A DNA stretch of 64,000 bases from assembly GCA_028819845.1 (NCBI GenBank), contig JAPPKS010000034.1:174217-238216 (forward strand), read 5' to 3'. This stretch comes from Candidatus Poribacteria bacterium. Its GTDB lineage: Bacteria; Poribacteria; WGA-4E; PCPOR2b. Of the stretch, positions 15,800 through 39,939 are shown piece by piece (within the stretch, counting starts at the first letter, position 1; every line of letters starts with the position of its first letter). A program made the position numbers and the translations under genes. Below the pieces are notes generated by a model. It had not been told where the DNA came from, searched no databases, and saw nothing but the letters and a program-made list of their open reading frames with translations.

Positions 15800-17209
15800 C
15801 TAAATTGCGAGTTTGTCCGTCACAGATTGCTGCAATTGCTTCCGAACAGATACCAACGGGATTCTTCCCATTGCCGGCTCAAAAAAGCCAGCGACAATCA
15901 TCTTTTCGGCCTGATCATACGATAACCCACGGCTCATGAGGTAGAACACCTGTTCTTTATCAATGGAACCAGCCGTTGCACCGTGGGTGCAACGCACCTC
16001 GTTTGCGTTAATCTCTAAACCGGGAAGTGTATCGGCATGTGCGCGTTTATTCAAAACCAAATTATCATTTTTTTGATACGCGTCGGTATGCTGTCCTTCC
16101 GGGTGAACGTAAATCATGCCGCTCCACACTGATTGTGATTGATTCTTGAGCACAGATTTGTAGAGCAAGTCGCTGGTTGTATGGTTGGCTTTATGCTCTT
16201 GATATGTATGAATATCAATGTGTTGGCGCGCATGGGTGAACGTGAGCCCGAGCATATCAACACGGCAACCCGCACCCTCAAGAACGGAAACTTGGTTCAA
16301 CTTGCTAAGGCGGCTGCCTAAAGCGCCTGTAATCCAACGGAATTCAGCATCTCTATCGACAATTGCGCGTTGACTTGAAAAGTTCCAAACTTGGTGATTC
16401 CAGCGCTGAATTTGTGCGTAATTCACTTGTGCGTTTCGTCCGACAAAAATCTCAACTGCCCCGCAATGCAATCCGGGCGCCGCAACGTCAGCCGATAGCT
16501 GCTCTTCCACAATGGTAATCTGACTTGAATCGTCAGCGACAATTATTGAATGCGCGAGATCGGCGCGATTTGCCTCAGACAACGCGATAAAAACATGCAT
16601 CGGAATTTCGACGACAACGCCTTTGGGAACATGCAGCAGGAATCCTCCTTGCCAGAAGGCTCCGTGCAGCGCGTCGAAGCTATTCCAATCAATCCTCACG
16701 GCTTTGGTCATGAAATATGAGCGGACGAAATCCGATCGTTCCTGCAAAGCGGTATTAATGTCTGCAAAGTACACCCCTTTGCGTACAAGTTCTTTCGATA
16801 GCGCATGTTCTACAACGCGGCCATCTTGTACGGCTATTACGCCTGATGCCTCGTTCGATTGAACCTGCGCGGCGCTGGTGTTGGGCAAAACGGGATCCGA
16901 TTGCATCAATTTCCCGTTTGGGGTGAGTGCAACGGGTTGATACTTCTCTAGCTTCAATCCCCGCATATTTCTCGCTGTCCGACGCCAATAATCTTGGGTG
17001 CACATAGCGGCTGTCCGGCGCCACACATCATCGGGCGTGATATGAGGCATTGGCAGGCTTTGGTAGCGTTTATAAGCATCCAATCGAAGCGAACGCATCC
17101 ATTGCGGCTCGTCCTGCTCGCTGGATATTTTTTCGACAAATTCCCGTGAGAAATTCCCCTTGTGAACTTCATATGCACACAGGGGATTCTTGATAAACTC
17201 CGCCTCCAA
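15800..17209 (-). CDS. sufD: Fe-S assembly protein SufD
   Basis: A 469-residue beta-helical subunit of the SufBCD scaffold. The family pattern is seen in IDWNSFDALHGAFWQGG, HVPKGVVVEIP and, near the C-terminus, INANEVRCTHGATAGSIDKE followed by YLMSRGLS. The length is at the upper end for SufD. The proposed TTG start (17209) has AGGAG 6 bases upstream and matches the family N-terminus. It is separated from sufB by 249 bases that hold a MITE, which may split transcription of the scaffold genes. Confidence 0.93.
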   Translation of the reverse strand: MEAEFIKNPLCAYEVHKGNFSREFVEKISSEQDEPQWMRSLRLDAYKRYQSLPMPHITPDDVWRRTAAMCTQDYWRRTARNMRGLKLEKYQPVALTPNGKLMQSDPVLPNTSAAQVQSNEASGVIAVQDGRVVEHALSKELVRKGVYFADINTALQERSDFVRSYFMTKAVRIDWNSFDALHGAFWQGGFLLHVPKGVVVEIPMHVFIALSEANRADLAHSIIVADDSSQITIVEEQLSADVAAPGLHCGAVEIFVGRNAQVNYAQIQRWNHQVWNFSSQRAIVDRDAEFRWITGALGSRLSKLNQVSVLEGAGCRVDMLGLTFTHARQHIDIHTYQEHKANHTTSDLLYKSVLKNQSQSVWSGMIYVHPEGQHTDAYQKNDNLVLNKRAHADTLPGLEINANEVRCTHGATAGSIDKEQVFYLMSRGLSYDQAEKMIVAGFFEPAMGRIPLVSVRKQLQQSVTDKLAI

Positions 17210-17240
17210 ATCCGTCTCCTATTTAAAGCAGCGGCGCGTG

Positions 17241-17447
17241 ACTAGTTTCTGTTGACAATTGGAAATTTGAACCCATCTCCATGCCCTAAGTTTTTGGGCA
17301 GGCACAAGACCTGCCCCTACATAATCCTTTTAGGGGCAACGCATGTGGTTGCCTTTATACGTCAGACATCGCCCCCGACTTGGGTTTTTGGCGAATTAAA
17401 AGGTTGTATGTCGCATTAGTACCACCAAAATGTCAACACGCCCTAGT
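17241..17447. mobile_element. MITE, copy 1 (207 bp), between sufB and sufD
   Basis: Bounded by ACTAGTTTCTGTTGACA on the left and TGTCAACACGCCCTAGT on the right, imperfect terminal inverted repeats around a TA at each end. It is nearly identical along its whole 207 bases to 39733-39939. The interior has two hairpins: GGGCAGG/CCTGCCC (17296-17316) and GGGGCAAC/GGTTGCC (about 17334-17353). There is no coding capacity. TIRs next to TA suggest a non-autonomous IS630/Tc1-type element; no transposase lies in the window. Confidence 0.85.
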
Positions 17448-17458
17448 TTTGACTGCTT

Positions 17459-18877
17459 CTATCCAACCGACCCTTCCATCTGAAGTTGGATTAGCCGGTT
17501 CATCTCCACCGCATATTCCATTGGAAGTTCCTTAACGAGCGGTTCGATAAACCCATTAACAATCATCGTCGAGGCCTCCTCTTCGGAAAGTCCGCGGCTC
17601 ATGAGATAGAATAACTGTTCCTCTCCAATCTTGCTGACACGCGCTTCATGTCCAATATTTACGTCATTTTCACCAATTTCGATGACCGGATAGGTGTCAG
17701 ATTGAGACTCTTCATCAAGGATGAGGGCATCACAGACAACGTTAGATTTACACTGGTTTGCGCCCTTAAGGACTTTGAGCTCACCACGATAACTAGAACG
17801 TCCACCGTCCTTGCTAATGGACTTGGAGGTGATGCGCGAAGTCGTGTTCGGCGCGCAATGAATGACTTTCCCCCCTGCATCCTGATGCTGACCTTTGCTC
17901 GCAAAAGCGATCGAGAGAATCTCACCATGTGCGCCTTTGCCCTTCATATAAACGCTGGGGTACTTCATAGTCAGCTTGGATCCTAAGTTACCATCGATCC
18001 ATTCCATATGGGCATCTTCGTAGGCGACGGCTCGCTTAGTAACAAGATTATACACGTTATTTGCCCAGTTCTGGATTGTGGTGTAGCGGACGCGCGACCC
18101 TTTCTTGCAGATAATCTCGACAACGGCGCTGTGCAGCGACTCGCTGGAGTATGTGGGGGCTGTGCAACCTTCTACGTAGTGAACTTGAGCACCTTCGTCT
18201 GCAATAATCAGCGTCCGTTCAAACTGCCCCATATTTTCGGTGTTGATTCGGAAGTACGCTTGCAGTGGATAATCGACCTTAACGCCGGGCGGAACATAGA
18301 TGAAGCTGCCGCCACTCCAGACAGCGCTGTTGAGTGCGGCAAACTGGTTATCCGCTGACGGGATAACTGTCCCGAAATATTCTTTAACAAGATCGGGATA
18401 TTCGCGAACGGCGGTGTCAGTATCGACGAAGACCACACCAATCTTATCCAGTTCTTCCTCAATGTTGTGATAGACAACTTCCGAATCATATTGCGCACCG
18501 ACGCCAGCGAGGAACTTCCGTTCGGCTTCGGGGATACCGAGCCGATCGAAGGTTTTTTTGATGTCATCGGGAACGTCATCCCAACTGCGCTCACTCCGAT
18601 CAGAAGCCTTGACGTAATAATAAATGTCATCGAAGTTGAGTTGAGAGAGATCGCCGCCCCACTTAATCATCGGCTTTTGTTTAAAGATTTCATAAGCTTT
18701 CAGCCGATATTGGCGCATCCAGTCAGGTTCACCTTTGACATCGCACATCTGGTTAATGATTTCAGCATCGATGCCCTTGCGAGATTTGAAGACAGGTTTA
18801 ATATCATCATGAAACCCGTACTTATACTCGCTGTCCACGTTAAGATTTTCTTGAATTTGCATATTGGGTGAAGCCAT
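17459..18877 (-). CDS. sufB: Fe-S assembly scaffold protein SufB
   Basis: The 472-residue core scaffold of the SufBCD complex, in which Fe-S clusters are built. Typical blocks are [39 protein letters not shown], the ligand-region segment [18 protein letters not shown], and C-terminal [24 protein letters not shown] is 5-6 bases before ATG 18877. In transcription order it follows sufC, but the partial sufC duplicate lies in between. Confidence 0.97.
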
Positions 18878-18897
18878 GTTGTGTCCTTTCGTTGGGG

Positions 18898-19699
18898 TAA
18901 GGAGTAAGGCGTAATGAGTAAAGCGTAATTAAATTTGTTGCATATTATTGGTTATGGATTATAGCGGTGCGATTCCGTATTTCTCCCGTATTGGGTCGTA
19001 TCCTTCATCCTCCAAAAGTTGGGCGAGTTCCCATCCGCCGGATTCCACAATTTTGCCATCGAGGAGAATGTGTACGAATTCCGGACGGATATAGTTGAGG
19101 AGACGTGGATAGTGGGTAATGATCAAGACGCCTAACTCTGATCCGATCAATTGGCTAACACTTTCACCAACGATTCGCACGGCGTCAATGTCTAATCCAG
19201 AATCCGTCTCATCAAGAATTGCGATCTTTGGTTCGAGCATTGCCAGTTGCAAAACCTCAGCTCGTTTCTTCTCTCCGCCTGAAAACCCGTCGTTGAGATA
19301 AGGAGTAAGGCGTAATGAGTAAAGCGTAATTAAATTTGTTGCATATTATTGGTTATGGATTATAGCGGTGCGATTCCGTATTTCTCCCGTATTGGGTCGT
19401 ATCCTTCATCCTCCAAAAGTTGGGCGAGTTCCCATCCGCCGGATTCCACAATTTTGCCATCGAGGAGAATGTGTACGAATTCCGGACGGATATAGTTGAG
19501 GAGACGTGGATAGTGGGTAATGATCAAGACGCCTAACTCTGATCCGATCAATTGGCTAACACTTTCACCAACGATTCGCACGGCGTCAATGTCTAATCCA
19601 GAATCCGTCTCATCAAGAATTGCGATCTTTGGTTCGAGCATTGCCAGTTGCAAAACCTCAGCTCGTTTCTTCTCTCCGCCTGAAAACCCGTCGTTGAGA
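18898..19699. repeat. Exact tandem duplication, two 401-bp units
   Basis: Unit 1 is 18898-19298 and unit 2 is 19299-19699, identical wherever I compared them. Each unit holds the last 340 bases of sufC plus about 60 bases of downstream spacer beginning TAAGGAGTAAGGCGTAATG. Identity without drift means it is either very recent or an assembly duplication. Confidence 0.95.
18959..19298 (-). pseudogene. Truncated duplicate of the sufC 3' end
   Basis: A second copy of the last 113 or so codons of SufC, from just before the signature motif FSGGEKKR through Walker B ILDETDSGLD to the natural end YGIAPL. It lacks Walker A, so it cannot act as an ATPase. It arose by the 401-bp tandem duplication. The internal Met codon (19252) has no recognisable ribosome site. 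It lies between the intact sufC stop and sufB. Confidence 0.9.
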
Positions 19700-27431: not shown

Positions 27432-28145
27432 TTAACCTTCGGTCCGCCAGCTATATTGCTGCCAATAGTCGGGATTGTCAAGTTCTTGAAGGTGCCGTTC
27501 TATCTCTGTTATTACATCTGTGTCCATAGTGAGTTTTAGAATGATCTGAAAATCTGATTTCGCTTCCTGCATGCGTCCTAAAAAGCCTTGTGTTTCGCCC
27601 CGGATCTTGAGGGTTCTGATGTCATCAGGATTCTGCTTAATCCTTCCATCCATACGAGCAATCCCACCCTCATAGAAATTTAGCGTGCCTTCCGCGTCCT
27701 TGCGTCCGTCGATACTTTCGGAATCGCTTGGGTCAAGACTGAGAGCTGCATCAAAATCGAGAATGGCGGCTTCATATTGGTCCAAGTTGTAATTCGCTAG
27801 ACCTCGTCTGTAATAGGCGTGAGAGAGTAGGGAGAGTTCAAGGCCTAGTCGTATGGCTTCGTCAAAATCTGCAATCGCGCAACGGAATGACGCACGGCTA
27901 ACCGCGAGAATAGACTCGCGTGGTGCTAGGAAGTCTTTCAGACAACCCCGATGGAAATAGGCTTCGGCGAAATTCGGGTTGAGACGGAGTGCCTCATCAT
28001 AATCCAAAATTGCGGACGGATCTTGATCTTGGGTAGCCCTCGCTTTTCCCCTGTTAAAATAGGCTTCGGCAGAGTTTGGATTAAGACGGACAGCCTCGTC
28101 GTATTCGGCGGGTTCGGATGTGTCGGATCGTGTTCCAGTTTGCAT
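27432..28145 (-). CDS. Tetratricopeptide-repeat protein (237 residues)
   Basis: Consecutive TPR units are clear: YDEAVRLNPNSAEAYFNRGKA, YDEALRLNPNFAEAYFHRG, FDEAIRLGLELSLLSHAYYRRG and FDAALSLDPSDSES. There is no signal peptide. The N-terminus enters almost directly into a repeat, so it may be truncated, although ATG 28145 is acceptable. TPR domains mediate protein-protein contact; no partner is indicated. It follows the metallophosphoesterase gene by 24 bases. Confidence 0.85.
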   Translation of the reverse strand: MQTGTRSDTSEPAEYDEAVRLNPNSAEAYFNRGKARATQDQDPSAILDYDEALRLNPNFAEAYFHRGCLKDFLAPRESILAVSRASFRCAIADFDEAIRLGLELSLLSHAYYRRGLANYNLDQYEAAILDFDAALSLDPSDSESIDGRKDAEGTLNFYEGGIARMDGRIKQNPDDIRTLKIRGETQGFLGRMQEAKSDFQIILKLTMDTDVITEIERHLQELDNPDYWQQYSWRTEG

Positions 28146-39732: not shown

Positions 39733-39939
39733 ACTAGGTTCTGTTGACAATTGGAAATTTTAACCCATCTCCATGACCTGAGTTTCTGGGCAGGCATAAG
39801 ACCTGCCCTTACATAATCCTTTTAGGGGCAACGCATGTGGTTGCCCTTATACGTCAGACATCGCCCCCGACTTGGGTTTTTGGCGAATTAAACAGTTGTA
39901 TGTTGCATTAGTAACACCAAAATGTCAACACGCCCTAGT
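39733..39939. mobile_element. MITE, copy 2 (207 bp), in the ygfZ leader
   Basis: Same length and order as copy 1 (17241-17447) with a limited number of substitutions. The ends are ACTAGGTTCTGTTGACA and TGTCAACACGCCCTAGT. The interior has the GGGCAGG...CCTGCCC and GGGGCAAC...GGTTGCC hairpins. There is no ORF of its own, although an open frame from 39922 runs from its right end into the downstream gene. Confidence 0.85.

What the first reader, a model, noticed from the sequence alone, without database searches (positions are those of the whole stretch)
17241..17447. 207-bp MITE family with TA-flanked GTTGACA ends and two internal hairpins
This and 39733-39939 are the same length and nearly identical, with inverted ends sharing TGTTGACA and TA at the boundary. 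No transposase is nearby, so a trans-acting IS630/Tc1-type enzyme is expected elsewhere.
Basis: partly seen in the sequence, partly recalled or inferred. Interest (0 to 1): 0.6.

Follow-up and report, generated by a model that had tools for sequence, protein, structure and literature searches.

The report
IS5-type miniature transposons carrying palindromes
The 207-base repeat is one of about thirty short, gene-less jumping elements in a Poribacteria genome, most likely moved by an IS5-type transposase rather than the IS630 type first proposed, and its hairpins are a second, independently spreading kind of small repeat carried inside it.

Summary
In detail: two 207-bp copies, 94% identical, with inverted ends bounded by TA. 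The element proper is 199 bp between two TAs (17245-17443; 39737-39935). The host genome has at least 30 paired-end copies, with several unrelated interiors. The mobiliser is not IS630. DDE_3 is absent from this genome. An 812-bp element with the same ends in a sister Poribacteria genome encodes an IS5 transposase (NF033580, 260.7 bits against a 110 cut-off). IS5 transposase fragments lie directly behind the same ends where contigs of the window's own genome break. Elements with the same ends in other organisms also match this family. The duplicated target is TA in YTAR. The internal hairpins are GTAG-tagged palindromes of the REP type: 49 of 72 hairpins in 48 elements carry the tag, against at most 2 in shuffles. 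They also occur outside these elements and in genomes without them; two RAYT genes are present. So this is a mosaic MITE family nesting REP/REPIN modules. The parts are known; the combination looks new.

The parts
17243..17445 (+). MITE copy 1 (type A) including both TA target duplications (17243-17244 and 17444-17445); element proper 17245-17443, between the stop of sufB and the start of sufD
17245..17260 (+). left terminal inverted repeat GTTTCTGTTGACAATT (other copies GGTTCTGTTGACATTT)
17428..17443 (-). right terminal inverted repeat, read inward GGGCGTGTTGACATTT
17296..17320 (-). GTAG-tagged palindrome (REP-like) GTAGGGGCAGGTCTTGTGCCTGCCC; the same pattern occurs 11 times in this genome and in 21 of 58 genomes searched
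17330..17353 (+). second palindrome TTAGGGGCAACGCATGTGGTTGCC, tag decayed (GTAG in the sister copy L004); tail-to-tail with the first
17369..17394 (.). third, untagged palindromic stretch TCGCC...GGCGA
   Evidence: seen in sequence
39735..39937 (+). MITE copy 2 (type A) including both TA duplications; element proper 39737-39935; upstream of a GcvT/YgfZ-like gene
39788..39812 (-). palindrome 1 of copy 2 (tag decayed, GTAA on the minus strand)
39822..39845 (+). palindrome 2 of copy 2 (tag decayed to TTAG)

Best explanation
The repeat is a non-autonomous, IS5-family (IS427-like) MITE. A transposase encoded elsewhere in the genome binds the asymmetric pair of ends (GGTTCTGTTGACATTT and GGGCGTGTTGACATTT), moves the element and inserts it at TA within YTAR, duplicating TA. 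Membership by ends, target and partner transposase is shown by sequence; the transposition step is inferred. The interiors are mostly not shrunken transposase genes. In this Poribacteria group many are built around GTAG-tagged palindromes of the REP type, often arranged as REPIN-like inverted pairs and sometimes pair within pair. These palindromes also spread on their own, so each such MITE is a nested composite: IS5 ends outside, REP modules inside. Arms (end plus subterminal stretch plus palindrome) are re-paired among copies, giving a mosaic family. That RAYT transposases put the palindromes there is inferred.
For: Family and ends: 30 paired elements; TA on the left in 29 of 30 and on the right in 26 of 30; pyrimidine before the left TA in 29 of 30, purine after the right TA in 27 of 30; the two 4-mers are equal in only 14 of 30, so the duplication is TA, not YTAR. 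Partner: 812-bp L128/L129 with the same ends, L128 encoding 262 aa, NF033580 IS5 at 260.7 bits (cut-off 110), PF13340 and PF01609. Own genome: IS5 fragments behind the ends at contig breaks C13 and C24, and matching end sequences at C16 (both ends) and C23. Same ends with IS5 transposase frames in 5 of 6 longer elements from other genomes tested with L263 the miss (L281, L222, L260, L210, L198 yes), and L282 on a 133-aa frame as well, so 6 of 7 in all. Lineage-specific insertion: the distance from the sufB stop to sufD residue 33 is 345 bp here, and 106, 146, 146 and 62 bp in four relatives; four others have other inserts but no such paired ends. The copy-2 locus lacks the paired ends in 8 of 8 relatives. 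Recent activity: 205-bp copies identical, or 204/205 and 202/205. REP modules: 49 of 72 hairpins tagged, 33 of 48 elements; non-redundant 35 of 54 and 21 of 34; 50 shuffles gave at most 2 and 1. Independence: the window's palindrome occurs in 21 of 58 genomes, 11 of which have no MITE end; 42 GTAGGGG palindromes in the own genome, 17 inside paired elements. RAYTs NF047646 at 124.8 and 132.2 bits (cut-off 80), one flanked by four GTAG palindromes. Mosaic arms: 16 MITE arm combinations (17 with the two transposase-bearing elements), with triangles a1-a3-a10 and a4-a11-a14.
Against: No intact transposase copy is assembled in the own genome, only fragments at contig ends. No transposition was observed. 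The GTAGGGG-type palindromes found in the MITEs were not found beside any RAYT examined: of 23 Y1-transposase loci scanned the nearest is about 1.3 kb away in one, so their cognate enzyme is unidentified. One MITE palindrome (in L114) is identical to the one flanking a RAYT, but in another genome. Ten of 48 elements carry no tagged palindrome even with the laxer finder, and the host flanks also hold some (8 in 13,962 bp). Arm classes depend on a clustering threshold (a looser run merged most arms).
Confidence: 0.85

Rival explanations
1. MITE mobilised by an IS630/Tc1-type transposase.
For: TA duplication and a CTAG-like target fit IS630 too (target preference recalled). DDE_3 genes exist in 50 of 58 genomes searched.
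Against: 0 DDE_3 matches in the own genome and in G001, which has 31 ends. No IS630 gene was found between these ends; in L140 a DDE_3 lies about 2.3 kb from a lone end with another gene between. Elements with these ends carry IS5 transposases.
Confidence: 0.04
2. The hairpins are ordinary RNA or DNA structure kept by selection (for example transcript processing) and are unrelated to REP/RAYT elements.
For: MITE interiors in other phyla hold other palindromes without the tag. Copy 1 sits between sufB and sufD, where structure could affect the transcript.
Against: The GTAG tag, its strict position and its independent dispersal in MITE-free genomes; tag decay in copy 2; no terminator or promoter match in 17150-17520.
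Confidence: 0.2
3. The palindromes came in because IS5 ends captured DNA that already held REP clusters (two ends enclosing it), rather than by REPs inserting into MITEs.
For: Some lone ends lie near REP arrays (C6:12285-13602). Mosaic arms show that ends pair promiscuously.
Against: Elements with the same arm classes exist with and without the inner palindrome pair (L141 of 160 bp against L138 of 268 bp), which fits insertion or loss within an existing element.
Confidence: 0.3
4. Two copies from one segmental duplication, not a mobile family.
For: Only two copies in the window.
Against: 30 paired copies, unrelated flanks, TA borders, relatives without the insert.
Confidence: 0.01

Closest known systems
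IS5 family, IS427-type insertion sequences (e.g. IS1248 and ISPpa2 of Paracoccus, PMC3281130, passages seen)
   Same: Length about 830-865 bp there against 812 bp here (elements in other organisms 800-926 bp), short inverted ends, 2-bp target duplication, IS5 transposase; split frames in several relatives.
   Different: The window copies are 199 bp with no coding capacity. The group (IS427) was not tested by a tree; NCBIfam only says IS5 (NF033580).
Bacterial MITEs such as Correia/NEMIS, RUP and Nezha (named in PMC3733652 and PMC2817692, passages seen)
   Same: Short, gene-less, inverted ends, mobilised in trans, may be transcribed with neighbours.
   Different: Those named as IS630-derived in PMC2817692 (Correia, RUP) have another partner; here it is IS5, with interiors made of GTAG palindromes and exchanged arms.
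REP/REPIN and GTAG-tagged palindromes with RAYTs (PMC3733652, PMC2817692, PMC3116915, PMC8266576)
   Same: 20-40 bp palindrome with a GTAG tag, singlets and head-head or tail-tail dimers, RAYT genes in the genome, one with flanking copies.
   Different: Here many copies ride inside DDE-type MITEs; the RAYT cognate to most MITE-borne types is not identified.
GTAG-15 REP dimers inside long palindromes in Anabaena variabilis (PMC3733652 section 7, read in full)
   Same: REP dimers regularly embedded in a longer inverted-repeat element; the nearest precedent I found.
   Different: No transposase was assigned there and no variety of interiors or target duplication is described in that section.
TIMEs, mosaic Tn3-derived miniature elements (PMC4133298, passages seen)
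   Same: Miniature elements that form mosaics.
   Different: Tn3-type ends, 5-6 bp duplications, few copies per genome.

Membership tests
[quoted passage not shown]
   30 own-genome elements, 141-386 bp with both TAs
[quoted passage not shown]
   same ends on 812-bp L128 and L129
[quoted passage not shown]
   TA on the left 29/30, right 26/30; 23 matches in the genome
IS5 family (as mobiliser) | transposase of IS5 type encoded between the same ends | tested here: met
   NF033580 260.7 bits, cut-off 110; own-genome fragment L302 68.4 bits for 72 aa, below the whole-protein cut-off because it is cut by the contig end; PF13340 62.9 bits
IS5 family, IS427 group | 2-bp duplication, about 830-850 bp, two overlapping frames | tested here: inconclusive
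   TA duplication and 812 bp fit, but L128 is a single frame; split frames in L198 and L222; no tree made
IS630/Tc1 | DDE_3-type transposase with matching ends | tested here: not met
   0 of 1 own genome; none found between these ends
REP / REPIN (internal hairpins) | GTAG tag directly 5' of a 20-40 bp palindrome | tested here: met
   49 of 72 hairpins, 33 of 48 elements, shuffles at most 2
REP / REPIN (internal hairpins) | dispersed copies independent of other elements | tested here: met
   11 genomes with the window's palindrome but no MITE end
REP / REPIN (internal hairpins) | RAYT gene in the genome | tested here: met
   two RAYTs over the NF047646 cut-off
REP / REPIN (internal hairpins) | cognate RAYT flanked by the same palindrome | tested here: not met
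   GTAGGGG types not adjacent to any of 23 Y1 loci scanned; the flanking types differ. Only GTAGGTGCGGTTTGCAACCGCACC (MITE L114) matches a RAYT flank, in G040 (L326)
REP / REPIN (internal hairpins) | mobilised as single strand by the RAYT | not testable with these tools
   needs a biochemical assay; strand sorting in G040 is only suggestive

The most novel reading that the evidence does not exclude
Poribacteria run a two-engine system: IS5 MITEs serve as vehicles and landing pads for REP/REPIN palindromes, nested up to three deep (MITE, outer REPIN, inner REPIN in L138), and swap arms at these palindromes. A single-strand repeat system thereby gains a double-strand transposition route, and a MITE family keeps renewing its interior.
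Probability: 0.3. Interest if true: 0.6.

Novelty: new variant of a known kind. Interest (0 to 1): 0.42.

Why it matters
It corrects the enzyme family, gives a testable partner (an 812-bp IS5 element with the same ends), and shows two unrelated kinds of small mobile repeat nested in one unit. How REPs spread between loci and lineages is an open question (PMC3116915 calls the mechanism of REPIN dissemination unresolved and the PMC8266576 abstract calls REP dissemination poorly understood), and a DDE-type carrier would be a simple added route. Copy 1 also sits inside the iron-sulfur assembly genes, where a structured insert may alter the sufB-sufD transcript.

Tried and rejected
IS630 as mobiliser: rejected. 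A 4-bp YTAR duplication: rejected, since left and right 4-mers differ in 16 of 30. Two long pairs of ends (1164 bp in G007, about 2.2 kb in G012) as autonomous elements: rejected, because host genes lie between. First hairpin statistics used a finder that missed 3-base loops; replaced. Single-linkage arm clustering merged most arms; replaced by average linkage. Rfam: only a tRNA in the window. A motif search for sufD failed in most relatives; replaced by protein alignment. GC skew sampled in G040 to place replication origin and terminus was flat and uninformative. Paper searches for Poribacteria with miniature inverted-repeat, Poribacteria with transposase and repetitive, REPIN/RAYT/MITE, REP with MITE terms and the end sequence showed in their listings no paper describing this family or a REP-in-IS5-MITE composite; the library lacks most subscription journals.

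Dropped before counts: L005 (too many end mismatches), L113 and L118 (runs of N) and loci without a pair were left out (48 elements kept); L062 and L063 are repeats of L004 and L005 and were not counted twice; lone ends (for example L066, L071, L072, L074) were not counted as elements.

Full report
OBSERVATION. The window holds two copies of a 207-bp repeat, 17241-17447 and 39733-39939, 94% identical without indels, and no longer shared flank. Read base by base, each is bounded by TA, with ends GKTTCTGTTGACA at the left and, read inward, GGGCGTGTTGACA at the right. The outer two bases on each side are target context; the element proper is 199 bp.

THE FAMILY. The host genome is 4.61 Mb in 35 contigs; the window is C25:174217-238216. 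The 207-bp query has 23 matches there. The end 15-mer occurs 53 times exactly, and the stricter 18-mer 46 times against 0 for the reversed control. I took out 40 stretches and, with the loci, scored 30 distinct elements with both ends. They fall into at least three interior types: the window type (about 200 bp), a modular 170-386 bp type, and a 205-bp type (lengths with both TAs) with copies identical or 204/205 and 202/205 alike, which suggests recent movement. Left TA 29 of 30, right TA 26 of 30, left neighbour a pyrimidine 29 of 30, right neighbour a purine 27 of 30, equal 4-mers only 14 of 30. So TA is duplicated and YTAR preferred.

ORGANISM AND SPREAD. The window's genome is in the same family as G001-G008. 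The 18-mer end occurs in 16 of 58 genomes including its own; of the nine genomes in its own family (itself included) eight have it. The ends are therefore those of a widespread IS group, with miniature derivatives of various sizes in several phyla.

THE PARTNER. In G006 two 812-bp elements carry the same ends. One encodes 262 aa, NF033580 IS5 family at 260.7 bits with cut-off 110, PF13340 and PF01609. In the window's own genome, matches to this protein lie immediately behind the same ends where contigs C13 and C24 stop. C16 (both ends) shares the C24 end sequence, and C23 begins with an end like that of C13. The C13 fragment matches PF13340 and NF033580. The likely reading is that the assembly breaks at near-identical full elements, which is why none is seen whole. 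Frames from 6 of 7 longer elements with the same ends elsewhere also match NF033580; L263 does not. PF13358, the IS630 domain, has no match in this genome.

INSERTION AT THE TWO LOCI. Copy 1 lies between sufB (17459-18877) and sufD (15800-17209), named by TIGR01980 and TIGR01981. From the sufB stop to sufD residue 33 there are 345 bp here, and 106 (G003), 146 (G002), 146 (G009) and 62 (G010) in four relatives; G005, G004, G001 and G006 have 264, 612, 769 and 898 bp with other inserts but not these paired ends. Taking 203 bp off leaves 142 bp here, like G002 and G009. Copy 2 lies upstream of a GcvT/YgfZ-like gene; the paired ends are absent in 8 of 8 relatives' loci examined.

THE HAIRPINS. In 48 elements (29 own, 19 from relatives), 49 of 72 hairpins have GTAG directly before, or CTAC directly after, the stem, in 33 elements. 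For 34 non-redundant elements the figures are 35 of 54 and 21 of 34. Fifty dinucleotide shuffles gave at most 2 and 1 tagged hairpins. Flanks of up to 150 bp a side held 8 tagged of 23 in 13,962 bp, so the host background is not zero. With a laxer finder 38 of 48 carry one. Of 10 elements with two or more, 8 have tags pointing outward (><, ><<, >><<), as in REPINs; one (L004, window type) is tail-to-tail, one is head-to-tail. L138 carries four, pair within pair. The window copies are decayed: copy 1 keeps one tag, copy 2 none.

THE HAIRPINS LIVE ALONE TOO. GTAGGGGYKRGG palindromes occur 42 times in the own genome with 0 for the control; 17 are inside paired elements, 8 within 300 bp of a lone end, 17 elsewhere. 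G010, G013, G018 and G019 have 189, 107, 74 and 70 but no MITE end. The window's own palindrome pattern is in 21 of 58 genomes, 11 of which have no MITE end. The window-type double hairpin also occurs without MITE ends at four of ten partial matches inspected (L310, L311, L312, L316). The genome has two RAYTs over cut-off; one is flanked by four copies of GTAGGCGCGGCATCTTGCCGCGC. Against a simple story, the MITE-borne GTAGGGG types are not next to any of 23 Y1-transposase loci scanned. The one match is GTAGGTGCGGTTTGCAACCGCACC, six copies around a RAYT-like gene in G040 (L326) and one inside MITE L114 of G007.

MOSAIC STRUCTURE. Clustering the 45 bases inside each end gives 17 arm classes (two own-genome IS ends included). 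The MITEs show 16 combinations (17 with the two transposase-bearing elements), including triangles (a1-a3, a3-a10, a1-a10; a4-a11, a4-a14, a11-a14), so arms have been re-paired. Arm a1 resembles the IS left end (a7) by eye (CATCG.AACC.GA.AAT), so part of the family descends from the IS; other arms share only the terminal repeat.

MECHANISM. Shown: ends, target, partner gene, dispersal, lineage-specific insertion, tagged palindromes inside and outside. Inferred: trans-mobilisation by the IS5 enzyme; RAYT-type origin of the palindromes; arm exchange by recombination. Possible effect on sufB-sufD expression is speculation; no promoter or terminator pattern was found there.

COMPARISON AND NOVELTY. 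IS427-type IS5 elements mostly have 2-bp duplications and about 830-865 bp (PMC3281130, passages). GTAG REPs and head-head/tail-tail dimers are described in PMC3733652 (abstract, passages and sections 7, 12 and 16 seen), which also reports REP dimers inside long palindromes in Anabaena variabilis, the closest precedent. PMC3116915, PMC2817692, PMC8266576 and PMC4133298 were seen as passages. IS630's CTAG preference is recalled. Searches naming Poribacteria found nothing. I file it as a new variant of a known kind: an IS5 MITE family with nested REP modules.

Noticed in passing
window 18889-19589: A 300-nt stretch (99%) repeated at 401-bp spacing right beside sufB. It reads like a duplicated 3' part of sufC (by eye) and could be real or an assembly effect.
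   Followed up: no
G040 (complete contig), places: GTAGGGGCAGG..CCTGCCC palindromes are strand-sorted: 15 of 16 listed places before 2.13 Mb on the minus strand, 7 of 7 after 2.55 Mb on the plus strand (23 of 32 listed). Other GTAG palindromes in samples lean the same way. It suggests replication-linked single-strand insertion; GC skew samples did not locate origin or terminus, and the breakpoint was chosen after seeing the data.
   Followed up: partly
G000:C6:12324-13602: An array of eleven GTAGGGG palindromes in about 1.3 kb beside a lone MITE end.
   Followed up: no
L041, L047, L052, L053 interiors: A 20-36 bp unit (GATCAACCGAGTGAATAGCGAGG-like, sometimes twice) interrupts one arm of the GGGCGAGG palindrome in many 230-386 bp elements (by eye); origin unknown.
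   Followed up: no
L347-L350 (G005, G001, G006, G004), sufB-sufD gap: The same gap in the sister genus holds other inserts, including a short antitoxin-like reading frame (by eye) and, in G006, GTAG palindromes, so the gap is a recurrent insertion site.
   Followed up: partly
L059 / G000:C26:170422-170639: A 205-bp MITE abuts another end of the family, sharing one TA, as if inserted at a neighbour's border.
   Followed up: partly
window 27946-28106: A 59-nt direct repeat at 75% identity, 102 bp apart, possibly a repeat protein.
   Followed up: no
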